Of a stretch of 64,000 nt of DNA, positions 2,551 to 63,377 are shown one piece after another. This stretch comes from an uncultured Flavobacteriales bacterium. Lineage in GTDB: Bacteria; Bacteroidota; Bacteroidia; Flavobacteriales_G; Salibacteraceae. Numbering within the stretch: position 1 is the stretch's first letter; every line of letters starts with the position of its first letter. The notes under the pieces are model-generated. The model did not search any database, had not been told where the DNA came from, and was given only the letters and a program-made list of their open reading frames with translations. The DNA is taken from NCBI GenBank assembly GCA_937121175.1, contig CAKZKD010000002.1, positions 248,001 through 312,000 of the forward strand, given 5' to 3'. The position numbers and the translations under genes are program-made.

Positions 2551-3414
2551 ATGATTTCTACGATAAAACCTCGTTTACTATTTACCGTTTTGGTGCTTTT
2601 TTCGGCAAGCCTGTTGTTTGCACAAGACGAAACCTTAGGAGCGTTTCAAAACAAAGTAGCCAAGTTTAAGGACGATACTGTTTGGACACCTGCGGCGCAA
2701 CCAACTTTAATGGTCATTCCTTTTGAACCTATGATGTACCGTTCTAGTATTGACCGAAGTATTGGCCAAACTGATGGCACAACCTACAAGCAAATTGTAG
2801 GGAATTTCCGTAAAGGACTCGATAATTTATTGTTCATAGAAACGGATGCGCAGTACAGAGTAATTCGATTGTTGGTAGATGATGAAGATCGAAAAAAAGA
2901 CCTTTATACAGTTTATAGTAAGTCAAGCGGGGAATACCGAGTGTTACAAAAAGAACCAGAAGAAGCTCCGAAAAAGATAAACCTGCCTAAGCTCAAGAAA
3001 AAAGAGGAAGAAAAACCAAAACCACACGGTACAAGAATGGAAAACGGCCAAATAAAAAGTGATAATGACGGTCAGGAGCGTTTTATGGCTCGAAAAATTA
3101 ACGATGAAGAGCTGTTTACATACTTACACGGAAAGTATGGGTCGGTGTTGTATGTATTCATCAATCAATTCGATATTGGACCAATGGCTGGGTTGGATTA
3201 TCGAGCATTTGAAGGCGACGAATATCAGCGAGAAATAAAAGTGCATTATTCGATTTATACCCACGAGCATGAAATTTTTTCTGGAGTGGCGCGCACTTAT
3301 TTTTCAAGTACGGTGAATAACCAAAAAGATATCATTGTAGAGAATATGCCTAACTTGGCGCGGCAAATAGCAAAGAGTATTCCGGTTCTAATTTCGTCCG
3401 AAAAAGCTAAATAA
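2551..3414 (+). CDS. secreted protein of unknown function
   Basis: I do not recognise the family. The product is 287 residues with an N-terminal signal peptide (hydrophobic stretch at about 9-24 ending SLLFAQ, cleavage probably after FAQ), so it is exported to the periplasm or outer membrane. The middle (about 130-165) is very rich in Lys, Glu and Pro (KKKEEEKPKP), suggesting a flexible linker between two more ordered halves. No membrane helix follows the signal. Its stop codon overlaps the start of the antiporter gene (TAATG), so the two are probably translated together. Confidence 0.75.
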   Translation: MISTIKPRLLFTVLVLFSASLLFAQDETLGAFQNKVAKFKDDTVWTPAAQPTLMVIPFEPMMYRSSIDRSIGQTDGTTYKQIVGNFRKGLDNLLFIETDAQYRVIRLLVDDEDRKKDLYTVYSKSSGEYRVLQKEPEEAPKKINLPKLKKKEEEKPKPHGTRMENGQIKSDNDGQERFMARKINDEELFTYLHGKYGSVLYVFINQFDIGPMAGLDYRAFEGDEYQREIKVHYSIYTHEHEIFSGVARTYFSSTVNNQKDIIVENMPNLARQIAKSIPVLISSEKAK

Positions 3415-50830: not shown

Positions 50831-51817
50831 CTACAACTCCCTCACCATCAAACTCTCCGCAAAGTCTTTGAGAATTTTTTTACGGCTATCATCAGCAGAA
50901 ATGCTATTTAGTGCAATTCCTGCGTTAACATAAAAGGTATTCATGTCAGCCTTGGCTCTGTTCCGAATATCAAGCGCATTAAATACCGTTTTCACTTGCT
51001 CAATTTTTTTAGAGCCATCAATGCTTGTGCTGTTGTATAAATCAACTAATTCTTGCCGCTGAGTTTCATTAGAAATGGAGTAGGCTTTTGCAAATAAATA
51101 CGTCTTTTTACAAGCTAAAACATCACCCCCAACTTGTTTCCCAAACTTTTCGGGGTCGCCAAATAAATCAAGAATATCGTCTTGCAGTTGAAAGGCAATT
51201 CCAAAGTTTTTTCCGAAATCGTACATTAGGTTAGCATCATTCTCTGAAGCCCCAGCCATAATCGCTCCTATGCGCAGGCTTTCTCCTAATAGCACAGCGG
51301 TTTTGAGTTCTATCATCCCCAGATAATCATCTAGGCTCACGGTTGGTTTAATCTCAAAATCCATGTCCAATTGCTGACCTTCGCATACCTCAATTGCGGT
51401 TTTATTGAAGTTGGAAAACAAGGAATGGAATTTTGAATCGGTATTTTTACTCAAGTATTGGTAAGCTAAAATCATCATGGCATCACCTGAAAGAATTCCG
51501 GTGTTTTCATCCCATTTTTTGTGCACCGTGGCATGGCCTCTTCGAAGTGGTGCTTCGTCCATTATATCGTCATGAACTAACGTGAAGTTATGAAAAACCT
51601 CTACCGCAATAGCTTGATTAATAGCTATTTCTGTGTCAGCGCCAAATAATTCTGCGGCAGCTAAGGTGCAAACCGGGCGCACTCGTTTTCCGCCTAATTC
51701 CATGATGTATTGAATAGGCTCGTACAGTTGTACGGGTTGATTTTTAAACTCAGTGAGTTTTATTTTTTCTTCGAAGAAGTTTCTTAGCTCTTCAATGGAG
51801 TGCTGAGTAGTTGCCAT
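50831..51817 (-). CDS. polyprenyl diphosphate synthase, probably C20 (GGPP-type)
   Basis: 328 residues; joins isopentenyl units into a longer prenyl diphosphate. The first Asp-rich motif DDIMD is at 83-87 and the second is in QLQDDILDLFGDP at about 215. GGKRVRPVC and the KTAVLLGES helix are typical. The fifth residue before the first motif is Phe 78 and the fourth is Thr, with no insertion in the motif. In known enzymes this pattern goes with geranylgeranyl diphosphate (C20), so that is my guess for the product. Last gene of the minus-strand run starting at 57439; it begins one base after the rfbA stop. Confidence 0.92.
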   Translation of the reverse strand: MATTQHSIEELRNFFEEKIKLTEFKNQPVQLYEPIQYIMELGGKRVRPVCTLAAAELFGADTEIAINQAIAVEVFHNFTLVHDDIMDEAPLRRGHATVHKKWDENTGILSGDAMMILAYQYLSKNTDSKFHSLFSNFNKTAIEVCEGQQLDMDFEIKPTVSLDDYLGMIELKTAVLLGESLRIGAIMAGASENDANLMYDFGKNFGIAFQLQDDILDLFGDPEKFGKQVGGDVLACKKTYLFAKAYSISNETQRQELVDLYNSTSIDGSKKIEQVKTVFNALDIRNRAKADMNTFYVNAGIALNSISADDSRKKILKDFAESLMVREL

Positions 51818-52681
51818 TTAATCTTTTAGAAGCGTGAGTAGATATTTTCCGTATCCACTTTTAACCAACGGCTGGGCGATTTGTTCAAGTTGCTCATCAT
51901 TTATAAAGCCCATGTGCCACGCAATTTCTTCTATACACGAAATCTTCGTGCCTTGTCGTTTCTCGATAACTTCAACATATTGGCTTGCTTGATTCAGTGA
52001 GTCTATAGTGCCAGTATCCAGCCACGCTGTTCCTCTATCAAGCACTGAAACTTTTAATTTTCCTTGGGCGAGGTACTCCTTGTTTACATCGGTAATCTCG
52101 TATTCGCCCCGTGCAGAAGGCTCCAAGTTTTTCGCAATGTCAATCACCGAATTATCGTAATAATACAGTCCTGGAACGGCAAAGTTTGATTTAGGATGCT
52201 CTGGTTTTTCTTCTATGGAAAGTGCAGTATAATCTTCGTCAAAATCAACAACACCATAACGTTCTGGGTCAGATACCCGATAGGCAAAAATTACTCCTCC
52301 GTCTGGAGTAGTGCATGAACGAAGCTTTTGTGGTAGCCCAGAGCCGTAAAAAATATTATCTCCAAGAATTAAAGATGCACTGTCTTTTCCTATGAATTCT
52401 TCTCCAATTACAAAGGCTTGCGCTAGTCCATTAGGAACTTCTTGAACAGCATAACTAAAACTACACCCAAGTGCAGAGCCATCTCCAAGCAAACGCTCGA
52501 ATAACGGTAAGTCATGAGGTGTACTGATAATTAAAATATCTCGTATTCCGGCCAATAAATGCAATGAAAGCGGATAATAAATCATTGGTTTATCATAAAT
52601 CGGCATGATTTGCTTGCTTATTGCCAAGGTAAGAGGGTGAAGACGAGTTCCAGAACCTCCAGCGAGAATAATTCCTTTCAT
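51818..52681 (-). CDS. rfbA: glucose-1-phosphate thymidylyltransferase
   Basis: 287 residues; makes dTDP-glucose from glucose-1-phosphate and dTTP, the first step toward dTDP-rhamnose and other deoxysugars. The nucleotide-binding signature is [12 protein letters not shown] (about 6-17), then [25 protein letters not shown], and [10 protein letters not shown] near 220. Complete and of usual length. The other dTDP-sugar genes (rfbB, C, D) are absent here, so rfbA is isolated within a lipid-themed operon. Confidence 0.95.
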
Positions 52682-52704
52682 GGGTTTAATTTAGAAGCAC
52701 GAAT

Positions 52705-53166
52705 TTACTTAAACTCAATTTTACAGTTGAGCCATTCGTCATCAATTAAGGTTTTGTGTTTTTTATAGAAGTTGATTGCAGGTTCGTTCCAGTTCAGCAC
52801 TTGCCATTCTAAGCGTTTTACACCGGCCTTTTCAGATATAGAAATGAGTTCTTTTAGCAACAAACTACCTATGCCTTGCATGCGTTCACTTTCTTTTACA
52901 ATAATGTCTTCGAGGTATAAACAGCGCCCTTTCCAAGTGGAATATTTAGTGTAATACAAAGCAATTCCGGCAACTTTTCCGTCTTTTTCAGCTACCAAAA
53001 AATCGAAGATTTTATTTGACCCAAACCCGTCTTCAAGCAATATTTCTTCGGTTACAATCACCGCATTAGGCTCGCGTTCGTATGCAGCCAGTTCTTTAAT
53101 TAGGTTTAATAGTTCTGGAATATCCGAAGGGGTTCCTTTTCGTAAGTGAATGTTGTTTGAACTCAT
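52705..53166 (-). CDS. GNAT-family N-acetyltransferase
   Basis: 153 residues with the GNAT fold of diamine-acetyltransferase type: LRKGTPSDIPELLNLIKELA at the start (read as LRKGTPSDIP), CLYLEDIIVKESERMQGIGS with the acetyl-CoA loop (R/Q-x-x-G-x-G/S as MQGIGS), and VLNWNEPAINFYKKH at the end. The substrate is probably an amine. It overlaps the AMP-ligase gene by four bases, so it may act on the same product. Confidence 0.88.
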   Translation of the reverse strand: MSSNNIHLRKGTPSDIPELLNLIKELAAYEREPNAVIVTEEILLEDGFGSNKIFDFLVAEKDGKVAGIALYYTKYSTWKGRCLYLEDIIVKESERMQGIGSLLLKELISISEKAGVKRLEWQVLNWNEPAINFYKKHKTLIDDEWLNCKIEFK

Positions 53167-54659
53167 GTGGTCAAAATTAACTTCAATTTCCCATAATCAA
53201 TCTTTGAATTATGCCTAGGGTCGCGGGGGATTTTTTCAATCAATTTGATTTCGTCAAACTCGAATGATTTTAGCAATAGTAATAACTCCTTTTCACCCAT
53301 TTTCGATTCCAATATAATTGCGATTTTAGAATTTATTTCCAGCATAGTTCCCATCGTAACTCCCATAATTTGTTGCAATTGATTTTCGATTATAAATGGA
53401 CTAATCAGCTTTCCATTTTTAGAAATCAGTTGAGCACACCTGCCTGTTAAATACAATTCGCCGTTTTTAATAAAACCAGAGTCTCCAGTGCGATGCCAAA
53501 TTTTATTGTATTCAATTATTTTATTGCGATTAAATGCTTTTTGGTTGTTGAAATAAGCAGCCAAAACGTGATGCCCCGAGACAATAATTTCTCCGATTGA
53601 ACCATTGGAAAATGAATAGTTTTCTAACGATTCGTTTTCAGAAAGGGTGATAACTTCTTCAGTGCTTTTAATGATTCGAACTTCTGCATTTGGATACAAT
53701 TGACCTACAGGTAATCCGCTATCTAAAGTCTCATTTTGACTCAATGTTTTTGCCGAAATAGAGCTAATGGGTTCAGCTTCTGTAGAGCCATAAGCAATAA
53801 TGGAATCTGTATCCGGAAAAGCATTGCAATACAATTTCGCCTCAGAAGGAAAAACTGGCGCTCCTCCTGTAAATAGCTTTTCAAGCTTGGGCAGTTTAAT
53901 TCTGTTTTCAACGCTAAATTCAGCCAAACGTTTTATAAAAAATGGTGAGGCAGTAATTCTAGAAACGTTGTTTTTAATCAGCTGGTTAATGATTTTTTTG
54001 GGGTCTAAATTATTGGGTTTGGTTTGCTTGTAATCGGCAATGATTGAAGTGCAACCAACACCCAAGTTGACAAAGAGGACAATGGGTAAAATTGGCATAT
54101 CAATATCGGTTGGTTTTGGTTGTATTTCATGAAGCAAAGCCTTGAACTGTTCGTTCAAAAATACATGTGAGCGTAAAGCTGCCTTTGGTGTTCCTGTGCT
54201 GCCTGTGGTAAACGTGATTAGGGCTGGAGTGTCTCCAATTAGGTCAAGCGGAGCAAGCGTTCCATATTCTCGTTTATTTGGATTTAGTTTAACCGGAATC
54301 TTGCGCAATTCTTTGGAAAAGAGAGCAAGCAAACGAACTTTTGTTCCTGCAATGAAACCTTTACACTGGGCAATTTCGCAACAGATATCAAGGCGTTTTT
54401 TATTTACCCATTCGTCTAGAAAAACGGCTGTGGCACCAATGTAAAACAAGGCAAGCACTGTTCGGTATAAATCAATACTCATGGGAATAAAAACCAACAC
54501 TCGGTCGCCTTTCTGAATTCCTTTATTTTGAAAATATAGCGCTGTTTCTTGAACCTCTTTGCTCAGTGTGGCGAAGGTGATTTCTTTGTTCTTTTCAATA
54601 ATAGCCTTTTGGTTGGGATAGGCTTCTGAGGCCTCAAGAAATAGGTTTACGATGTTCAT
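53163..54659 (-). CDS. AMP-forming acyl/aryl ligase (OleC-like)
   Basis: 498 residues of the acyl-adenylate-forming family. The P-loop is TFTTGSTGTPKAALR (about 148-162), the A5-like motif is AYGSTEAEP (about 295), and the A7-like motif HRTGDSGFI with a final GKL region is present. The order resembles fatty acyl-AMP ligases of the OleC type, which make beta-lactones or acyl-CoA. The natural substrate is unknown. The C-terminal lysine region is short and ends SKIDYGKLKLIL. It overlaps both neighbours by four bases (ATGA). Confidence 0.88.
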   Translation of the reverse strand: MNIVNLFLEASEAYPNQKAIIEKNKEITFATLSKEVQETALYFQNKGIQKGDRVLVFIPMSIDLYRTVLALFYIGATAVFLDEWVNKKRLDICCEIAQCKGFIAGTKVRLLALFSKELRKIPVKLNPNKREYGTLAPLDLIGDTPALITFTTGSTGTPKAALRSHVFLNEQFKALLHEIQPKPTDIDMPILPIVLFVNLGVGCTSIIADYKQTKPNNLDPKKIINQLIKNNVSRITASPFFIKRLAEFSVENRIKLPKLEKLFTGGAPVFPSEAKLYCNAFPDTDSIIAYGSTEAEPISSISAKTLSQNETLDSGLPVGQLYPNAEVRIIKSTEEVITLSENESLENYSFSNGSIGEIIVSGHHVLAAYFNNQKAFNRNKIIEYNKIWHRTGDSGFIKNGELYLTGRCAQLISKNGKLISPFIIENQLQQIMGVTMGTMLEINSKIAIILESKMGEKELLLLLKSFEFDEIKLIEKIPRDPRHNSKIDYGKLKLILTT

Positions 54660-55681
54660 AATTCCATGCCGTAAAGTGAATAATTCTTATAGAACCCTCC
54701 GTCCGTAGCGTATTTGTCTGAAATAGCACGAGAGGCATTATCCTTAATCATAAACGCATGAATCACTTTTTTGTAGCCCATTTTTTTTGCCAATTGAACG
54801 GTTTTACCCGCTAGATAGCTACCGATTCCTCGAAAACTGGAGTCCTTTTTTCTGGCCATTGATTTCACAATTAAAGTAGTTGGTGGTTTTTTAGATTCAA
54901 AATGGTCAGGAATCGAAAAAATAAAGGCTTCAATTTCTTCGGATTTATTTTCAACTATCCAAACCAATTTTGGGTCAATAAAAGCCTGAATTTTCTTGTA
55001 CTTAGCAACAAATTCGGCAACGGATATTGGGGTAAATAGAAAATTATTGGAGAAGGCTTCCAAGCTAAATCGCGCGAGCTTTTCAAATTCGTTTTCAATG
55101 TCCTGCATGTACAGGTTTCTAAAAACAGCACCTTTTTCGGTAAATATTTTTTCAAATTTTTCGAGTTGATTGGTGTCAACGTTTAGTTTTTCGTCCAAGT
55201 TAGAGAAGTAATCCGAGATTACTGAAAACCCAGCCTTTTGAAACTGTGTATTGTAATAATCGTGGTGATAAGGTTCCATAAAAAAGTTCCGAAAGTCGTT
55301 GTTGGAGCTAAATCGGTGGCTGTTCCATGTTGAACCCTCCATAGGGCCAAGGAGATATTTATAGCCTTTTTCTTGTGCAAGGGTTTTGGTATGTTCCAAT
55401 AATAGTTCGCTTGTTTCTGGGTCGTTTTCACATTCGTAGCTCCCAATGCAAGCCGCAGGCATTTCATTGTACTTAAGCTCTGGGTTTTCATAAAATGCAA
55501 ATCGGCCACAAGCTTCGCCGTCCTTTAGCAAAACATATAATCCTTCCAAAAATGTTTCAACTGGGTCGTGACCAAGTATAAACCGTGGGCTATTTTCCTT
55601 GTACAATTTCTTTGGCAATTCGCTGAATAGCTCGAAGTTGGGTTCTCCAAAATTTGTTTTTATGAATTCAAATTGGCTCAT
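54656..55681 (-). CDS. acyl-CoA N-acyltransferase-like protein
   Basis: 341 residues. It looks like two GNAT-like halves: RFAFYENPELKYNEMPAACIGSYEC in the first (around 80-110), and SMARKKDSSFRGIGSYLAGKTVQLA in the second (around 275-300, an acetyl-CoA loop as RGIGSYLA). LLGPMEGSTWNSHRF (about 140) is a stretch seen in similar Bacteroidota proteins. The acyl group and acceptor are unknown. It overlaps the ligase gene downstream and the kinase-like gene upstream by four bases each. Confidence 0.75.
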   Translation of the reverse strand: MSQFEFIKTNFGEPNFELFSELPKKLYKENSPRFILGHDPVETFLEGLYVLLKDGEACGRFAFYENPELKYNEMPAACIGSYECENDPETSELLLEHTKTLAQEKGYKYLLGPMEGSTWNSHRFSSNNDFRNFFMEPYHHDYYNTQFQKAGFSVISDYFSNLDEKLNVDTNQLEKFEKIFTEKGAVFRNLYMQDIENEFEKLARFSLEAFSNNFLFTPISVAEFVAKYKKIQAFIDPKLVWIVENKSEEIEAFIFSIPDHFESKKPPTTLIVKSMARKKDSSFRGIGSYLAGKTVQLAKKMGYKKVIHAFMIKDNASRAISDKYATDGGFYKNYSLYGMEL

Positions 55682-56355
55682 GCAATGTAGAATTCTTTAA
55701 GTGAAATTAAAACCAGTAGTGCACTCATTGGAATGGTAAAGTTATCCCATCCGTTGTGAGAAAATGCTTCGGCAAAAACAGAAACTAAAGCTACCGAAAT
55801 AGCAGTTATTATCGCAACTGAAACACCTGTTTTTTGTTGAAGAATTAGCAGCGCAAATGATATAAGAAAGGCAACAAAAATGAATGCCAAGGAGCCTGCA
55901 ACCGTCTTTGTGTGACCCAAAATGACATATGGCTTCCAACGGTATTTTTTACCTGCCAATGCAGCTGCGGGGTCAGCAAAAGCAAGTACCAAAATGGGCA
56001 AATAATAAAATGAGTGTTGGTCGTAATATTGGTAAACCAAATAGCAGATATAAACCACTATGGGAAACAAAAAGCTGCCTCTAGTTAGCCGTTTTACACC
56101 ATTTATGGAAGGCAGTAAATTGAAGATTTGACTTATAATTAGAATCAATAAAAAGCTAGCACAAAGCAGCATTACTAGCCAATGATTTTCAATTAATGGA
56201 GGAAACAACATGGTAAGCAGACCTGTGGACAAGTGCACGTATTTGCGGGTAAGTTCTGGGTGTACTTTTTTTACGTGATACAACCACTCAGCTGTGGCAA
56301 ATAGCACCAGAAAAACACCTGCTAGGATTATTGTATTTATTAGGTTTTGATTCAT
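55678..56355 (-). CDS. phytol/dolichol-kinase-like membrane protein (CTP-type family)
   Basis: 225 residues with about seven membrane helices. The family signature TRKYVHLSTGLL (about 36-47), then LAFADPAAALAGKKYRW (about 125-141) and GHTKTVAGSLAFI (about 147-159), is that of phytol, farnesol and dolichol kinases and the related CDP-diglyceride synthases. Members phosphorylate an isoprenoid alcohol using CTP. The start is ATG 56355, four bases after the fic stop; it overlaps the next gene by four bases. A role on a long prenyl alcohol would fit the prenyl synthase at the end of the operon. Confidence 0.82.
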   Translation of the reverse strand: MNQNLINTIILAGVFLVLFATAEWLYHVKKVHPELTRKYVHLSTGLLTMLFPPLIENHWLVMLLCASFLLILIISQIFNLLPSINGVKRLTRGSFLFPIVVYICYLVYQYYDQHSFYYLPILVLAFADPAAALAGKKYRWKPYVILGHTKTVAGSLAFIFVAFLISFALLILQQKTGVSVAIITAISVALVSVFAEAFSHNGWDNFTIPMSALLVLISLKEFYIA

Positions 56356-56359
56356 TCTA

Positions 56360-57439
56360 CTACTTTAGAATATCGAGTAAAGCATGATTCAAATACAGTT
56401 TTTCTTTTCCTAGTTGTTCACTTTGTAGAAATCCTGCTTTTTCTAATTCCATTAAATAGTTGCCAACAGTTTTTAAGTTTCCAATTCCAGCTTCTACTAA
56501 AAATTGCCTTTTTGTGTAGGGTAGATTAAATAAAATTTCTATTAAATCCTTTGAGTAAACTTTGGGTAGTTTTTGCTTTATTTCTTTTTCATACTCGCTC
56601 ATTTTTAATTCAATAGAAGCAATTCTTTTTCTGTCTTCAAGAGCGGTTTGCTCAACCATATCCAGCATGTAAATAATCCACTCCTCCCATTTGCCTTTTT
56701 CGGTTACCGCTCTCAGTTTGGAGTAATATTCGTTTTTGTTTTCAATAATATAGCGACTCAGAAAAAGTGCTGGAAGCTCTAATAAGTTGGTCAATTTTAG
56801 ATAAAGTAAAATGATAATTCTACCCGTTCTGCCATTTCCGTCTAAGAATGGGTGAATTGCCTCGAATTGATAATGAATGATTGCCATTTTTATTAATGGG
56901 TCAAGTGAATCGTTTGCGTGAATAAAATCCTCAAGGTTTTTGAGCTTGGCCCTGATAACCGACTCGCCTTCGGGCGGGGTGTAAACTACTTTTTTTGTGG
57001 CAGGGTTCATTAACTGAGTACCTGGAGCATTTCTTATTTCTGCAGTTGATACTTTAATTATCTGCATTAGTTTAATGAATAGATTGGTAGTTAGAATTGG
57101 CTTTTTATTCATGGCTTCTACACCAAACCACAGGGCATTTTTATAATGCAAAACCTCTTTTACGGCTGGGTCGATAATCTTTTTTTCGGCAATTGTTGAC
57201 TTAAATAATTCGTCTTGAGTGGTTATAATATTTTCAATAGCAGAGCTTGCCTGTGCTTCTTGCAGCTGAATGGTATCAATGAAAAGAGAGGGGTTTGGTA
57301 AATTGGTTACCGCCCCTTTCAACTCTGAAAGTGCGCGACTTGCAGCGATTGTTTTTTTTAGAATTGTCGGTGTTTCCACACTAATTTTAAGTGGCAATTC
57401 TGGTAAATCGTTGTACGGTATTTTAGGATTGTATTTCAT
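56360..57439 (-). CDS. Fic-family protein with N-terminal inhibitory motif and C-terminal winged helix
   Basis: 359 residues like the Shewanella-type Fic proteins. A Fic N-terminal region (about 1-100) contains the self-inhibiting motif SSAIEN (65-70, [ST]xxxE[GN]). The catalytic loop HPFLDGNGRTGR is at 196-207 and complete (His, acidic residue, Arg). A winged-helix domain follows (about 290-359, TKRQFLVEAGIGNLKTVGNYL). The enzyme should attach AMP to a Tyr, Ser or Thr of a target once relieved. The winged helix may bind the four half-sites just upstream (57478-57542). It is the first gene of the run down to 50831. Confidence 0.92.
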   Translation of the reverse strand: MKYNPKIPYNDLPELPLKISVETPTILKKTIAASRALSELKGAVTNLPNPSLFIDTIQLQEAQASSAIENIITTQDELFKSTIAEKKIIDPAVKEVLHYKNALWFGVEAMNKKPILTTNLFIKLMQIIKVSTAEIRNAPGTQLMNPATKKVVYTPPEGESVIRAKLKNLEDFIHANDSLDPLIKMAIIHYQFEAIHPFLDGNGRTGRIIILLYLKLTNLLELPALFLSRYIIENKNEYYSKLRAVTEKGKWEEWIIYMLDMVEQTALEDRKRIASIELKMSEYEKEIKQKLPKVYSKDLIEILFNLPYTKRQFLVEAGIGNLKTVGNYLMELEKAGFLQSEQLGKEKLYLNHALLDILK

Positions 57440-57477
57440 TGCATCTGCCCAAGGGCGTTTTTTACACTCGAAAATTA

Positions 57478-57542
57478 AACGAGGGTAAAAATAGGTAAAA
57501 ATTACCCCCGTTCAAGAAACAAGGGTAAATATTACTCTCGTT
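57478..57542 (-). promoter_or_regulatory. two inverted pairs of an 11-bp half-site upstream of fic
   Basis: Four copies of a half-site near AACGAGGGTAA occur: AACGAGGGTAA at 57478-57488, its inverted partner TTACCCCCGTT at 57502-57512, AACAAGGGTAA at 57518-57528 and TTACTCTCGTT at 57532-57542. Read in one direction they are AACGAGGGTAA, AACGGGGGTAA, AACAAGGGTAA and AACGAGAGTAA. The gap between btaA and fic holds nothing else. The array probably overlaps the fic promoter and looks like an operator for a dimeric regulator. Confidence 0.7.
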
Positions 57543-57544
57543 GA

Positions 57545-58639
57545 TTAGCTCGGTTCCTTTTTAAAATCAAGCCTAAACCCAGAATAAAAGAACCCCTTGT
57601 CAATTTTCGTAAGTCGGTTAGAAGTTTCTGTATTATAGACTACTTGGTCATTAACCTCAGCAATTTTTCGTTCTACCATTAAATTCCAGTAGGCAATTCT
57701 AGCCTTAGGGCTTGAATGTTCGACAATATCTGATGCAACCGCAGTGAAAATTTCCGGACTCATGTACTCAAAAATATTGGACAAATTAAATTTATCGAAG
57801 GAGCCATGCACTTTAAACGCCTCTTCGGCAAAGCCCTTAAATGTTTTTAGGTTGTTGACATTTTTTTTAATGGTTTCAAAGTTTTCGGGACGAGCATAAT
57901 GTGGTAGTTCATTTTCAAATTTGCCCTTCATGATAAAATTCAGGAAGTAGTTTTTTTGACAATTTTTAGCGCTTAAATGCTTCTTTGCGGTTCCAAGAAT
58001 AAAAGTAGAAACTGGTATTTTTACTTCATTCAAAAAAGCAGGGTCTCTCCCAAATCGACCCATAACGAACTTGCTGAAAAACACTTTAAAAAGCAAACGC
58101 CAGCGCCAGTTGTTCCAGCGCTTATCAAAGAATTTTTGTTGTTTGTCTTGCGATTTTACACGGAATAAATCGCTTACATTTTGTTTTGATTGAACCAGTG
58201 GCAACACTTTCTTTCGGAACAGTTCAAAGTATTTTTCGAATTTGCCTTCGTAGATAATTCCGTTTTCTATTTGGGTGAGGTTATTGTCCCAATAATTTGC
58301 AGATTCGATTGGCAAAGCACCTTTTACACTGGTATATAAATCACCTCGTTTGGTACTTTTTGAAAACCCAAGAAACTGCAAAAAATCGGTGTAATTCAGC
58401 GATTTAAAAGCTGCCTTTTTAAGCTCAATTAAGTGCAATTGAACTTCGTTTATATCAACAGCTAAAACGAGTTCTGGGTTATTCATGAGCAGCGAAAAGC
58501 TATTGTCACCAGCCGAGCCAATCGAAAAAACACGTTCTCTGGGTTGTACGTTTAACGCTTCGACTAGAATATCAGCATCCTCCCAGCAGTTGGCGTATCG
58601 AATAAAATCGTGACTTGTTTTTTCTAGCTGTTTACTCAT
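57545..58639 (-). CDS. BtaA-type S-adenosylmethionine 3-amino-3-carboxypropyl transferase (DUF3419)
   Basis: 364 residues. It carries the stretches of DUF3419/BtaA: RYANCWEDADILVEAL (about 14-29), RVFSIGSAGDNSFSLL (40-55), VLAVDINEVQLHLIELK (60-76), WRWRLLFKVFFSKFVMG (about 180-196), GRDPAFLNEV and NIFEYMSPE near 290. The family moves the 3-amino-3-carboxypropyl group of SAM to diacylglycerol, the first step in betaine-lipid synthesis. BtaB, the methyltransferase for the second step, is neither next to it nor fused, so the product may be the unmethylated lipid or another molecule. It overlaps the dikinase gene by eight bases. Confidence 0.85.
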   Translation of the reverse strand: MSKQLEKTSHDFIRYANCWEDADILVEALNVQPRERVFSIGSAGDNSFSLLMNNPELVLAVDINEVQLHLIELKKAAFKSLNYTDFLQFLGFSKSTKRGDLYTSVKGALPIESANYWDNNLTQIENGIIYEGKFEKYFELFRKKVLPLVQSKQNVSDLFRVKSQDKQQKFFDKRWNNWRWRLLFKVFFSKFVMGRFGRDPAFLNEVKIPVSTFILGTAKKHLSAKNCQKNYFLNFIMKGKFENELPHYARPENFETIKKNVNNLKTFKGFAEEAFKVHGSFDKFNLSNIFEYMSPEIFTAVASDIVEHSSPKARIAYWNLMVERKIAEVNDQVVYNTETSNRLTKIDKGFFYSGFRLDFKKEPS

Positions 58640-61169
58640 TCGTTACGATTTTAATTTTTCCTGTTGCACCGTCCATTTCTATTTCGTCACCCGTTTTTAA
58701 GGTGCGCAATAATCCCGAAACACTTACAATACAAGGTATGCCCATTTCTCTTGAAACAATAGCAGAATGACTTAACAAGGAACCACGTTCAACAATTATC
58801 GCCGAAGCGGTCGGAAACAGGGTAACCCAACCTGGGTCGGTACTTGAAGTAACTAAAATATCGCCATTTAAAGAATCTAATTCACTCGGGTCCATAATCA
58901 GTCGAACCTTGCCTTTCACTCTTCCAGGGCAACAGCCAATTCCCTCCAAATCCCCTTCAATGGGTTCCATTTTTTCGGTAGAATAAATGTATTCGTCTGT
59001 AAAATTATAGCCGTAAGTAAAGAAACGTTCTTGGGGGATTGGTTGGTTTTTATAGCCTTCAAATTCTTGTTTTCTTGCTTCGATATTGGTTTTTAATTCT
59101 GAATTAAACGGTGTTTTGTCAAGTGCCTTTATTTCATTCAACTCTAAATAAAACACATCTCGAGATTGGTCAATTTTACCTGCTTCTTGCAATTGAACTC
59201 CTATAGCGGACATCATTTTACGCACCATTCCAAAGCCTCGCGTTCTTTCGTACCGCAAGTTTTCTCGGTTGCTTACCAGCTCTCGTGCTTTGTTCAGCAC
59301 CACGTTAAACCACCACTTTTTCAGTCCAGAATTAAGTTTGGATTCAATCGTTTTTTCGGCCTGTTGTCTTAGGTCTACATCTATGGTTGAATTTGTTTTA
59401 CTAGCTGTTATGCCTTGTTGAACATACGATTTCAGGATTTTCAGAAACAATAATGGGTCTTGGTGGTATGATATGGTTTCTAGTTTCAATTCACCGACAC
59501 ATCGTTCGCCAAACTTGAAAATATAGGCATCAATTTTTTGTTTGATTTCAGGATATTGACCCTTTTCAAGTGCGTCCCAAATTTCTTTTGGGTTTTGATT
59601 TTCGAATAGCAGCTTACTCTCTGAATTAGCTGTAATAAGCGAAGCCAGTTCTATACTCTTATGGATAGGCTCTACGGAGATAATATCTTGGCTTCCGCAT
59701 AATAAATCGTTGTGAATATTAGGTTCTTCTGGGCAGATTTTTTGCGTTTGTTTTTGCAACATTCCAAACCAAATCATGGCGAAAAAATCATTGATTAGCG
59801 GTGCCTTCCAAGCCAATAAGAGTCTTGTTTCAAAGGACTTGTATTTGGCAACAATTTCGGGTATTTCAATTTTAGCAAAATCATAACCCTCATATTCAGC
59901 CATAACACCATTTAGGTGTTTCATAAAACGTTTGCGTTCCGAACGCAGATTGAACTGTAGATAAATCATTCTAAAAACCATAAAAACAATGCGCAACCAA
60001 GCTTTGCCCTTATTCATTTTATAGTCTTCTTTTAGCTCGAACCGCTCTTTAACGCCCATCATGTTTTCCATGAATTCCGCGTTGAGCGAGTAGCCAGGAA
60101 CCATGGCCAACATTTTATACCAAGCCAAAAGGTTATAATATACTCGTCCGCGCACCAAGCCGAGGGTATTCTCAAACACTTCTGAATGTCGGTCCAATTC
60201 AGCTTTACTTACGCCTAATAATTCAGTGAATTGCCGATATACATGCTCGTACATTTTTATGATAAACGAGTAGGTGAGTGGAGTCGTAATTCCGGGGTAA
60301 GATTCTATGATATTGCTGTTGTCCCAAAGAATGTATTCTCCCTTTTCGTGGCGCGTGGTTATAGGGCGAGTTTGCAACAAATAAATGGTGTCTTCAAAAA
60401 TCGCGAACTCAATATCTTGCGGAGCATTGAAATGTTGCTCTAGTTTACCGAGCAAATCAGCCAATTCCAATAGGTTTTTATCACTTACCGTAGATTGGTT
60501 TTGAAGTGCTTTTTCAACTTCATTTTTCACAATTCCAGAACCGTCGACATTGCTTTCAAAAAGGTGCGTTTTGGTTGCAATGTCACATTGAATTTCTTGG
60601 TTTTTTATACGAAAAGTGTCGGCATCCAATTCACCAGACACAAGTCCCTCTCCTAATCCATAAACCGAAGAAATTACTGTTGTTTCTTTGTCACCCGAAA
60701 CAGGGTCAAGGCCAAAACCAACGCCAGAAACTTGGCCGTTTACCATTTCTTGAACGATAACGCCAATTCCGGGATTTAAGGTCAATCCATTTTCTTCACG
60801 GTAGTTTCTAACCCGTTCTGAATTGGCAGATGCCCAAACAGCTTGAATTTTTCCCTCAATCTCTGAAGCAGGAACATTCAGAAACGTTTCGAATTGGCCA
60901 GCAAAAGAGAATTTCGCACCGTCTTCGTCTAAACCAGAAGAACGAACTGAATATTTTTTTGCCTTAAAGTCGTTTCCGAAATAGACCGAAATTTCATTCA
61001 GAATTGCTGCAGAATCTACGTTTTCGTTTTGTTGAACTGAAGCAGGAATTACACACCAATTTGGAATATTACATACTAGCTTTTCAAGCGCAAATAAGTT
61101 TTTGGCTTTCCCTCCAACCTCATTTACAGGGAATGAAACCGACTTTTTATGTGCAATAAACTGGTTCAA
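58632..61169 (-). CDS. PEP-synthase/rifampin-phosphotransferase-like dikinase
   Basis: 845 residues from TTG 61169, which overlaps the ubiA stop as TTGA. The ATP-grasp domain is at about 15-290 (VNEVGGKAKNLF, KYSVRSSGLDEDG, FETFLNV, VQEMVNGQVSGVGF, GLGEGLVSG, QTRPIT). A middle region (about 300-720) has no family I can name. The swivel domain is at the end (about 750-840, EMGIPCIV) with a phospho-His motif SLLSHSAIVSRE, His at about 801. The PEP-binding barrel of PEP synthase is missing, so the order is that of rifampin phosphotransferase. It should move phosphate from ATP through His to a substrate held by the middle domain. Lipid or prenyl substrate is inferred from context. Confidence 0.85.
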   Translation of the reverse strand: MNQFIAHKKSVSFPVNEVGGKAKNLFALEKLVCNIPNWCVIPASVQQNENVDSAAILNEISVYFGNDFKAKKYSVRSSGLDEDGAKFSFAGQFETFLNVPASEIEGKIQAVWASANSERVRNYREENGLTLNPGIGVIVQEMVNGQVSGVGFGLDPVSGDKETTVISSVYGLGEGLVSGELDADTFRIKNQEIQCDIATKTHLFESNVDGSGIVKNEVEKALQNQSTVSDKNLLELADLLGKLEQHFNAPQDIEFAIFEDTIYLLQTRPITTRHEKGEYILWDNSNIIESYPGITTPLTYSFIIKMYEHVYRQFTELLGVSKAELDRHSEVFENTLGLVRGRVYYNLLAWYKMLAMVPGYSLNAEFMENMMGVKERFELKEDYKMNKGKAWLRIVFMVFRMIYLQFNLRSERKRFMKHLNGVMAEYEGYDFAKIEIPEIVAKYKSFETRLLLAWKAPLINDFFAMIWFGMLQKQTQKICPEEPNIHNDLLCGSQDIISVEPIHKSIELASLITANSESKLLFENQNPKEIWDALEKGQYPEIKQKIDAYIFKFGERCVGELKLETISYHQDPLLFLKILKSYVQQGITASKTNSTIDVDLRQQAEKTIESKLNSGLKKWWFNVVLNKARELVSNRENLRYERTRGFGMVRKMMSAIGVQLQEAGKIDQSRDVFYLELNEIKALDKTPFNSELKTNIEARKQEFEGYKNQPIPQERFFTYGYNFTDEYIYSTEKMEPIEGDLEGIGCCPGRVKGKVRLIMDPSELDSLNGDILVTSSTDPGWVTLFPTASAIIVERGSLLSHSAIVSREMGIPCIVSVSGLLRTLKTGDEIEMDGATGKIKIVTNE

Positions 61170-62104
61170 TTCAATAAGGCTTTTAGCATTGGAATTCCGC
61201 CCAATCCTAGGTACATAAGAGCCGTCCAAGCAGCAGAAGAATATTCAATGAATTTGCTCATTTTTTCTGTTCGATTTTGACTAAATACCCAAATGAACCC
61301 TGGCAGAGAAAAAACGGCAAATAAGCAACTAAAAACTATAATTGAAAGGCCGCCATAACCGGCGTAATTGGCTGCGCCAATGGCAAGTAAAAGAGTGGTG
61401 AATAATAGCGCCAACCAAATAACTACTCCTCCTTTGGTTCCGTACATTCCGGTATAAGAAACTACTCCCTCTTCTTCGTTTTGTTCAGTTCTGATTTTAC
61501 GTCCAAATTCAAGCACCAACCCATTCATGTAGGATACTGAAAAGAACCAAAGCAGCCCAAAATGAGCAGAACTTCCTTCGAGTAGCCAATCCAATCCGCT
61601 CGAATAAATATCAATTAGCGGAATGATAAACATATGTGAGGTTATGTACAGAATTTGTCGTTTTTTAAGCCATTCTGGAACAAAAAACTCAACCGACATG
61701 AGCAGTAAATAAGCCAATACAACTCCGTAGAGAAAGAGCATATCCAGCTGGAAAATGGCAATGACGGCCACTTGAATTACGGCTACAATCCAACCTATAG
61801 TTTTAAGTTCTTTGAGTGAGATTAGTCCACGCGGAACCGGCAAATATTTGCGGTAGAGGGCATCGTCCTCTTTGTCTTTAAACTCGTCGAAAATGCGAAC
61901 TAGAAAAAACAACGTTACCGTTGCAAAAATGCCAATTAGAAAGTCTTGAGTGGAAATAAAGCCTTCAACTCCACGGCAAATTCTAGAATAAGAAACCGCC
62001 GAAAAAGTAAATGCGGTTATCATCAAACCGTGCGCTAAAAAAGGAAAGCGCTCTTTTTGGTAGATGTAAAATCGTTTGAAGAAAGGGAGGCTATTTTCTT
62101 GCAT
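61166..62104 (-). CDS. UbiA-family prenyltransferase
   Basis: 312 residues from ATG 62104 (inside the end of hmgR; the TTG at 62164 is an unneeded extension). Eight to nine membrane helices. The first Asp-rich motif is RIFDEFKDKEDDALY (D73xxxD77xxxD81) and the second acidic motif is in LEFGRKIRTEQNEEEG (about 205-220). The enzyme joins a prenyl chain from its diphosphate to an acceptor in the membrane. Which acceptor is unknown; archaeal-type DGGGP synthases are one branch of the family. It overlaps hmgR by 14 bases and the dikinase gene by four. Confidence 0.88.
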   Translation of the reverse strand: MQENSLPFFKRFYIYQKERFPFLAHGLMITAFTFSAVSYSRICRGVEGFISTQDFLIGIFATVTLFFLVRIFDEFKDKEDDALYRKYLPVPRGLISLKELKTIGWIVAVIQVAVIAIFQLDMLFLYGVVLAYLLLMSVEFFVPEWLKKRQILYITSHMFIIPLIDIYSSGLDWLLEGSSAHFGLLWFFSVSYMNGLVLEFGRKIRTEQNEEEGVVSYTGMYGTKGGVVIWLALLFTTLLLAIGAANYAGYGGLSIIVFSCLFAVFSLPGFIWVFSQNRTEKMSKFIEYSSAAWTALMYLGLGGIPMLKALLN

Positions 62105-63377
62105 TCTTTCTTCCAAAAATTTTGTGTGCTTTAGTAAAATGACCTGCTGACATAGCCGCTGCAATTGAAATTTCGCCAGCTAAGGCAACTGCGCAGCATA
62201 TTTCTGCAAATTTGGTTGCGTTGCCAACACCAGCGCAATTCATCATTGCTAAACACTCGTTTTGGGTAGCTAATCCAGTGCCTCCTCCAACGGTTCCAAC
62301 AATTAGAGAAGGAAGTGTAAGTGACACATATAGGTCTCCGTTTTCTTTAACCTGCATTCGGGTAATGCCAACTGATGATTCAGAAACACAGGCAGCGTCT
62401 TGACCACAGGCAATAAATAAGGCAGCCAACCCATTTGCAACATGACCTTGCGCACCAATGGCACCACTTTGCACTACGGCTAGGGTGGAGGATTGCCAGT
62501 ATTCTGCAATTCCTTCTGGAGTTGATTTTAAAGTTTTTTCGACTACTGCTTTCGGTAAGTTGACTTCTGCAATTACTTTTTTACCGCGAGCACTACTAAA
62601 CGAGAGTGCGGTGGCTTTTTTGTCGCCAGAATAATTGCTTTCTATGTACCATTCGATAGGAGTAATCGGAAAGTTTTCGAGAATAAATTGGCAAACGTTG
62701 TCTGTACAAATGGTGACCATGTTTTGGCCAGAGGCATCGCCGGTGAAATAGCTAAAAGTTAGAATCACGCTATTTCCCTCAACGTGCGTATGCATTTCAG
62801 AGAGTTGGGCGTAATTACTTGACTCGTTTACCACGCGTTTAAATTCCTCCATATTTTCATGCACCCATTTCACAAAAATCCCATTTTCAGCTAAAGAATT
62901 AAACTTAAAATAAGGACTTCGCTGAACGCTTTGGGCTGTGCTGATTGTAGAGATTCCTCCACTTAATCGGCAGGCTTTCATACCTCGATTATACGATGCC
63001 ACCAATGCACCTTCTGATGTTGCCATGGGAACAAAATATTCACCTTTGGCGTTGGTTCCGTTAATTAGAATTGGGCCAGCGAGCCCAATAGGAATTTGCG
63101 CCATTCCTATGAAATTCTCAATATTTCCTTTCAATTCCTCTGGAGCTTCCATTGGTTTTGGATTGGAAATTTCATTCGTTTTTATACCTTTTTCTTTTAG
63201 ATATGCCAATCGGTTTTCTTGGTCTGTTTTGGAATAGCCAGCCGGAAAAGGGGTTGTATCGAGTTGCTCAATTTGTTCGGGCGAAAGCGGAGCCAATTGC
63301 TTTATAAACTCTTCTGGAGTGTATTGCTCTTCAATTCCTTTTACGACCTTCTGAACTATTTTTTGATTGTGTGACAT
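62091..63377 (-). CDS. hydroxymethylglutaryl-CoA reductase, class I-like
   Basis: 428 residues; reduces HMG-CoA to mevalonate with NAD(P)H. The catalytic residues are all visible: Glu 122 in MATSEGALVAS, Lys 266/267 in SARGKKVIAEV, Asp 327 in CGQDAACVS and His 413 in MSAGHFTKAH. DASGQNM (214-220) replaces the class I DAMGMN motif. GTVGGGTGLATQ (361-372) and the CGQDAA stretch point to class I rather than class II. It begins the lipid-themed run, with a promoter-like region at 63412-63441. The mevalonate made here is unexpected because the same chromosome carries dxr. Confidence 0.93.
   Translation of the reverse strand: MSHNQKIVQKVVKGIEEQYTPEEFIKQLAPLSPEQIEQLDTTPFPAGYSKTDQENRLAYLKEKGIKTNEISNPKPMEAPEELKGNIENFIGMAQIPIGLAGPILINGTNAKGEYFVPMATSEGALVASYNRGMKACRLSGGISTISTAQSVQRSPYFKFNSLAENGIFVKWVHENMEEFKRVVNESSNYAQLSEMHTHVEGNSVILTFSYFTGDASGQNMVTICTDNVCQFILENFPITPIEWYIESNYSGDKKATALSFSSARGKKVIAEVNLPKAVVEKTLKSTPEGIAEYWQSSTLAVVQSGAIGAQGHVANGLAALFIACGQDAACVSESSVGITRMQVKENGDLYVSLTLPSLIVGTVGGGTGLATQNECLAMMNCAGVGNATKFAEICCAVALAGEISIAAAMSAGHFTKAHKIFGRKNARK

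What the first reader, a model, noticed from the sequence alone, without database searches (positions are those of the whole stretch)
57440..57544. Four-site operator array in front of a Fic gene that has its own winged helix
Two inverted pairs of an AACGAGGGTAA-like half-site fill the only gap in the cluster. Fic protein C-terminal winged helices are suspected DNA binders, so the Fic protein may repress or sense and control the genes downstream (56355 to 50831). AMPylation linked to regulation of a lipid operon would be new.
Basis: partly seen in the sequence, partly recalled or inferred. Interest (0 to 1): 0.6.

Follow-up and report, generated by a model that had tools for sequence, protein, structure and literature searches.

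The report
Self-control operator array of SoFic toxin
In front of a bacterial AMP-transferring (Fic) protein of the SoFic anti-phage defence type lies a precisely spaced array of six DNA half-sites over its promoter; the same spacing precedes related genes from flavobacteria to E. coli, so this toxin family most likely represses itself by binding there, and it has no special tie to the neighbouring lipid genes.

Summary
The array is real and larger than reported: six 11-bp half-sites, not four, at 57448-57542. On the gene strand they run F-14-R-16-F-24-R-16-F-14-R (start to start), centred on a promoter-like element.

The same geometry lies upstream of SoFic-type fic genes across Bacteroidota, Photorhabdus, Pantoea, Cedecea and E. 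coli, including the gene of the solved E. coli Sofic (9VJC). It scored z>5 against shuffles in 72 of 144 genes, against 2 of 600 control windows. Half-site letters differ by lineage (CGAGGGTAA versus ATGTCGA) and track the wHTH recognition helix with no cross-over (56/56 and 25/25), although this is one evolutionary switch. Neighbouring genes are almost all different, so the array belongs to fic. In its own genome it occurs once.

Best explanation: SoFic dimers bind the array through their wHTH and repress their own promoter, as shown experimentally for the Fic-HTH toxin CccR. The lipid-operon idea is not supported: two relatives carry the same lipid genes in the same order without fic or array, the flanking genes overlapping, so fic plus array is an inserted cassette. 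Binding itself is untested here.

The parts
57532..57542 (-). half-site F1, AACGAGAGTAA
   Evidence: position in six-site geometry
57518..57528 (+). half-site R1, AACAAGGGTAA
57502..57512 (-). half-site F2, AACGGGGGTAA
57478..57488 (+). half-site R2, AACGAGGGTAA
   Evidence: PWM score 11.8 at the conserved spacing of 16
57448..57458 (+). half-site R3, CCCAAGGGCGT, weak here; strong in many relatives
   Evidence: recognised by position only
57487..57515 (-). promoter-like element: TTG (57513-57515), 19 bp, TATTTTT (57487-57493), the latter inside the central pair
   Evidence: for the letters; TAnnTTT at this same place in 47 of 72 arrays. That TTG/TAnnTTTG is the Bacteroidota promoter is from my own knowledge
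56360..57439 (-). fic gene, 359 aa: Fic_N, Fic (HPFLDGNGRTGR intact; class II inhibitory S-xxx-EN at residues 65-70), C-terminal winged helix; SoFic type
   Evidence: AlphaFold model pLDDT 87.5, Z 46 to Shewanella SoFic structures
56378..56602 (-). SoFic-like_C winged helix domain, residues 280-354
   Evidence: Pfam PF21248, 81.2 bits against cut-off 27; model helices and wing
56438..56476 (-). predicted DNA-recognition helix, residues 322-334 (KTVGNYL region)
   Evidence: residues that track operator class
57545..58639 (-). upstream neighbour, DUF3419; host cluster gene, not part of the cassette
55678..56355 (-). downstream neighbour, membrane protein without Pfam match (kinase/cytidylyltransferase-like is my guess); host cluster gene

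Best explanation
The array is the autoregulatory operator of a SoFic-type defence toxin. Dimers of the Fic protein bind the six half-sites through their C-terminal winged helices. The half-sites lie on similar faces of the DNA (14 and 24 bp differ by about one turn) and cover the fic promoter, so bound protein blocks transcription of its own toxic gene and keeps its level low; loss or titration of free protein would raise it again. Fic and array travel together as a cassette, and here the cassette has inserted between two genes of a lipid-type cluster. Shown here: the array, its conserved geometry, its association with fic and not with neighbours, the empty sites, the helix/half-site match. 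Inferred: binding by Fic, repression, dimers as the binding unit, defence role.
For: Six-site geometry F14R16F24R16F14R dominates 273 sites at 46 loci: R-F 16 seen 74 times, F-R 14 seen 62, F-R 24 seen 53. Score z>5 in 72 of 144 SoFic-type genes against 2 of 600 control windows, one of which is itself a SoFic-type array. Shifting the central, between-pair or outer spacing by 1 bp cuts the median z from about 10-11 to about 1-4. The same spacings recur with an unrelated half-site, ATGTCGA, in Photorhabdus, Pantoea, Cedecea and E. coli; the E. coli gene L152 encodes 9VJC except for the engineered H194A. Operator class and recognition helix agree 56/56 and 25/25 with no cross-over; TGTAC half-sites go with ER[RK] helices in 5 of 9 genes, TGTA[AT]AG half-sites only with [ST]R[PILS]TA helices, 12/12. 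Neighbours are nearly all different. In 296 Bacteroidota genomes the near-perfect array matches lie at SoFic genes, at truncated SoFic genes (L201 keeps residues 1-55, L203 residues 1-41), or are partial arrays without gene. TAnnTTT lies at one fixed place in the central pair in 47 of 72. Published analogue: CccR binds inverted repeats at its promoter and represses itself (PMC9755527); wild-type EcSofic is toxic and could be cloned only under three lac operators (PMC12249575).
Against: No binding or expression data for this protein. The clean helix/operator correlation between the two main classes is a single event on the tree, so it is not many independent confirmations. 53 of 144 genes, mostly more distant relatives and including the second SoFic-type gene in this genome, show no such array by any of my criteria; several have other repeats that I did not analyse fully. 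A few orphan partial arrays exist without a SoFic gene. DNA binding by SoFic had not been shown experimentally as of 2023 (PMC10628234).
Confidence: 0.85

Rival explanations
1. The array is the operator of a different, unlinked transcription factor that controls fic together with other genes (a defence or lipid regulon).
For: The binder has not been identified by experiment; orphan arrays exist, one about 150 bp upstream of hipBA-like genes (L206).
Against: No second array in the genome; across phyla the array goes with fic while neighbours change; half-site changes go with changes in the Fic recognition helix; orphan arrays are truncated or followed by SoFic remnants.
Confidence: 0.07
2. One reading: Fic senses something and purposely regulates the downstream lipid genes through this array.
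For: fic lies 4 bp upstream of the next gene in the same orientation, so its promoter could drive 50831-56355; array unique in the cluster.
Against: Same gene order without fic or array in G005 and G008, where the flanking genes overlap by ATGA; three genomes of the same genus lack this Fic and both flanking genes; no lipid context shared by other array-bearing loci.
Confidence: 0.05
3. The repeats act as RNA (attenuator or terminator hairpins) or as ends of a mobile element rather than as protein-binding DNA.
For: Palindromic pairs could fold in RNA; fic plus array is clearly mobile; solo partial arrays exist.
Against: The promoter-like element lies inside the array, so half of it is upstream of transcription; half-sites are all alike, not only paired; spacing between pairs (16) is as strict as within pairs; a matching array downstream of fic was met in only one locus, L085.
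Confidence: 0.03

Closest known systems
CccR of Yersinia pseudotuberculosis (PMC9755527)
   Same: Fic AMPylator with C-terminal HTH that represses its own promoter by binding inverted repeats near -35/-10; dimer needed for binding
   Different: Published operator is one pair of AGATAATCAT repeats 26 bp apart; here six half-sites of another sequence at 14/16/24. CccR is described as a secreted T6SS effector. I did not fetch CccR.
EcSofic of E. coli H397 (9VJC, PMC12249575) and Shewanella SoFic (3EQX, 3ZCN)
   Same: Same three-domain architecture and fold; the E. coli gene has the same array geometry upstream
   Different: The paper discusses the C-terminal domain as a switch of toxicity and its main text has no occurrence of DNA-binding, winged or HTH; half-site differs (ATGTCGA); a 47-aa antitoxin AS1 downstream there, none here
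CbFic2 of Coxiella burnetii (PMC10628234)
   Same: Fic with winged helix that binds DNA, activity induced by DNA
   Different: Authors report binding to random DNA sequences; no operator array described; described as having an N-terminal DUF4172 domain
Autorepressed toxin-antitoxin and R-M control systems with several inverted repeats (AbiEi, PMC7319586; C proteins, PMC4321490; abstracts only)
   Same: Dangerous gene kept low by binding to several inverted repeats at its promoter
   Different: There a separate antitoxin or controller binds; here toxin and repressor would be one polypeptide

Membership tests
SoFic-type Fic proteins | Fic_N, Fic and SoFic-like_C domains in one chain | tested here: met
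   all three above Pfam cut-offs
SoFic-type Fic proteins | PADLOC SoFic profile over full length | tested here: met
   E 7.5e-111, residues 11-358
SoFic equivalog NF046030 (NCBIfam) | score over the curated equivalog cut-off of 550 bits | tested here: not met
   421.5 bits: a SoFic-type relative, not an NCBI equivalog
SoFic-type Fic proteins | anti-phage activity by abortive infection | not testable with these tools
   reported for relatives (PMC12249575)
Class II Fic AMPylators | intact HxFx(D/E)GNGRxxR and N-terminal inhibitory (S/T)xxxE(G/N) | tested here: met
   HPFLDGNGRTGR; S65, E69, N70 invariant in the alignment
CccR-type autorepressing Fic | one pair of inverted repeats with 26-bp spacer | tested here: not met
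   six half-sites at 14/16/24
CccR-type autorepressing Fic | autorepression through own HTH | not testable with these tools
   supported only by comparison
Sofic-AS1 or other two-gene toxin-antitoxin | small antitoxin gene beside fic | tested here: not met
   4 bp to the next, 225-aa gene downstream; the 105-bp upstream gap is filled by the array

The most novel reading that the evidence does not exclude
The operator array is also part of the toxin's safety catch: DNA-bound SoFic is held in an inactive domain arrangement, so the array both represses fic and stores inactive toxin, and phage attack (for example loss or modification of host DNA) frees it in one step.
Probability: 0.12. Interest if true: 0.85.

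Novelty: new variant of a known kind. Interest (0 to 1): 0.55.

Why it matters
SoFic is a widespread single-gene phage defence whose regulation is described as unclear (PMC12249575), and DNA binding by SoFic had not been shown as of 2023 (PMC10628234). A strictly conserved array whose letters change between lineages gives a direct, cheap test in E. coli laboratory strains and predicts which recognition-helix residues set specificity. It also suggests how cells tolerate a toxin that has no separate antitoxin gene, and the array can serve as a marker for intact and decayed copies.

Tried and rejected
Single half-site counts as evidence: rejected, at background. A genome-wide regulon: none found. 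Viral relatives: none in viral contigs, one 8.8-kb phage record at 47%. Six-site geometry for distant relatives: mostly absent; the inner four-site geometry fits some Campylobacterota and others; other architectures not resolved. Independent-pairs test of helix against operator: too few independent changes for significance. The SoFic structures 9TB0, 9TC4, 9TCH and 9TCL appear by sequence, but they were not in the structure library and no titles could be read, so I cannot say whether they contain DNA. Papers: no report of a SoFic operator found in the library searched; preprints and most subscription journals are not held.

Full report
What is there. Comparison with relatives shows two more on the fic side, TTCGAGTGTAA at 57462-57472 and a weak CCCAAGGGCGT at 57448-57458. 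On the gene strand the six run F1-14-R1-16-F2-24-R2-16-F3-14-R3, start to start, and are symmetric about the centre.

The protein. The gene encodes 359 residues with Fic_N, Fic and SoFic-like_C domains, an intact catalytic motif and a class II inhibitory motif. PADLOC calls it SoFic. NCBI's equivalog cut-off is not reached (421.5 of 550 bits), so I call it SoFic-type. The AlphaFold model (pLDDT 87.5) matches Shewanella SoFic at Z 46 over 354-356 residues.

Chance or not. Half-sites alone are at background in window and genome. The geometry is not: z 13.5 against dinucleotide shuffles for the window. Of 144 distinct SoFic-type genes, 72 exceed z 5; of 600 control windows from the same loci 2 do, and one of these is a second array just downstream of fic in L085. 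Moving the central, outer or between-pair spacing by 1 bp drops the median z from about 10-11 to about 1-4. I chose the geometry on flavobacterial loci, so its recurrence in the other half-site class is the more independent test.

Same geometry, other letters. Photorhabdus, Pantoea, Cedecea, E. coli and many Bacteroidota have ATGTCGA half-sites at 14, 16 and 24. In E. coli the array is longer, about ten or more half-sites in 240 bp, with 24 and 14 alternating. One of these genes, L152, encodes the protein of structure 9VJC apart from the engineered H194A.

Who binds. The class of half-site agrees with the recognition helix of the same gene's protein: KT.G with CGAGGGTAA in 56 of 56, RQ.A with ATGTCGA in 25 of 25. 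On a tree built without the winged helix this is one switch, so it is consistent but not repeated evidence. Weaker parallels come from ER[RK] helices with TGTAC half-sites and [ST]R[PILS]TA helices with TGTA[AT]AG. Genes beside array-bearing fic genes are almost all unrelated to one another: 65 families among 75 upstream, 63 among 67 downstream. In 296 Bacteroidota genomes, near-perfect array matches lie at SoFic genes, at SoFic genes cut to their first 41 or 55 codons, or are partial arrays with no gene.

Promoter. TAnnTTT lies at one fixed place inside the central pair in 47 of 72 arrays; in the window a TTG lies 19 bp upstream of it. From my own knowledge this fits the Bacteroidota promoter. 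A protein on the array would cover it.

The lipid genes. In G005 and G008 the stop of the DUF3419 gene and the start of the next gene overlap (ATGA; read), and the PPDK-like, GNAT-like and AMP-binding genes flank them in the window's order, without fic or array. The window's fic and array are therefore most simply an insertion between them. The three genomes of the same genus in the sample lack both neighbours and this Fic. A purposeful link between AMPylation and lipid genes is not needed; passive effects on downstream expression remain possible.

Mechanism. Best reading: SoFic dimers occupy the array and hold their own toxic gene down. CccR, a Fic-HTH toxin, does this at its promoter (PMC9755527). 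EcSofic is toxic enough that it was cloned only behind three lac operators (PMC12249575), so tight control makes sense. Shown: anatomy, conservation, association, empty sites. Inferred: binding, repression, stoichiometry, defence role here.

Novelty. Autorepressing Fic-HTH toxins are known; the fixed multi-site operator of the SoFic family and its spread across phyla were not found in the papers searched. That library holds no preprints and few subscription papers, and four recent SoFic structures could not be inspected.

Noticed in passing
G000:C2:351618-352667 (L136, L137), outside the window: A second SoFic-type gene (44% identical) in the same genome has a different recognition helix (VSRQTARKYL) and a set of GTGTACAC-like repeats upstream, not the window geometry; the two paralogues look insulated from each other.
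   Followed up: partly
L201 (G054) 2961-3224; L203 (G219) 2989-3210: Arrays followed by truncated SoFic genes that keep only residues 1-55 or 1-41: decayed copies.
   Followed up: yes
L202, L204, L205, L206, L207: Partial arrays without any SoFic gene, mostly lacking the gene-proximal half-sites; L206 lies upstream of a hipBA-like pair. Probably relics, but use by other genes is not excluded.
   Followed up: partly
L085 1603-1680: A second array of ATAGTGGTAA-like half-sites directly downstream of a Helicobacteraceae SoFic-type gene.
   Followed up: partly
L152 1150-1430: The E. coli EcSofic gene has an extended array of about ten or more ATGTCGA-like half-sites over 240 bp.
   Followed up: partly
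L109, L110: SoFic-type genes apparently directly after or overlapping an HsdM-like coding region, without an array.
   Followed up: no
window 50831-63377: Run of HMG-CoA reductase-like, UbiA, PEP-utilising enzyme, DUF3419, membrane protein, GNAT-like, acyl ligase, nucleotidyltransferase and polyprenyl synthetase genes; partly conserved in order in G005 and G008. Product unknown to me.
   Followed up: no
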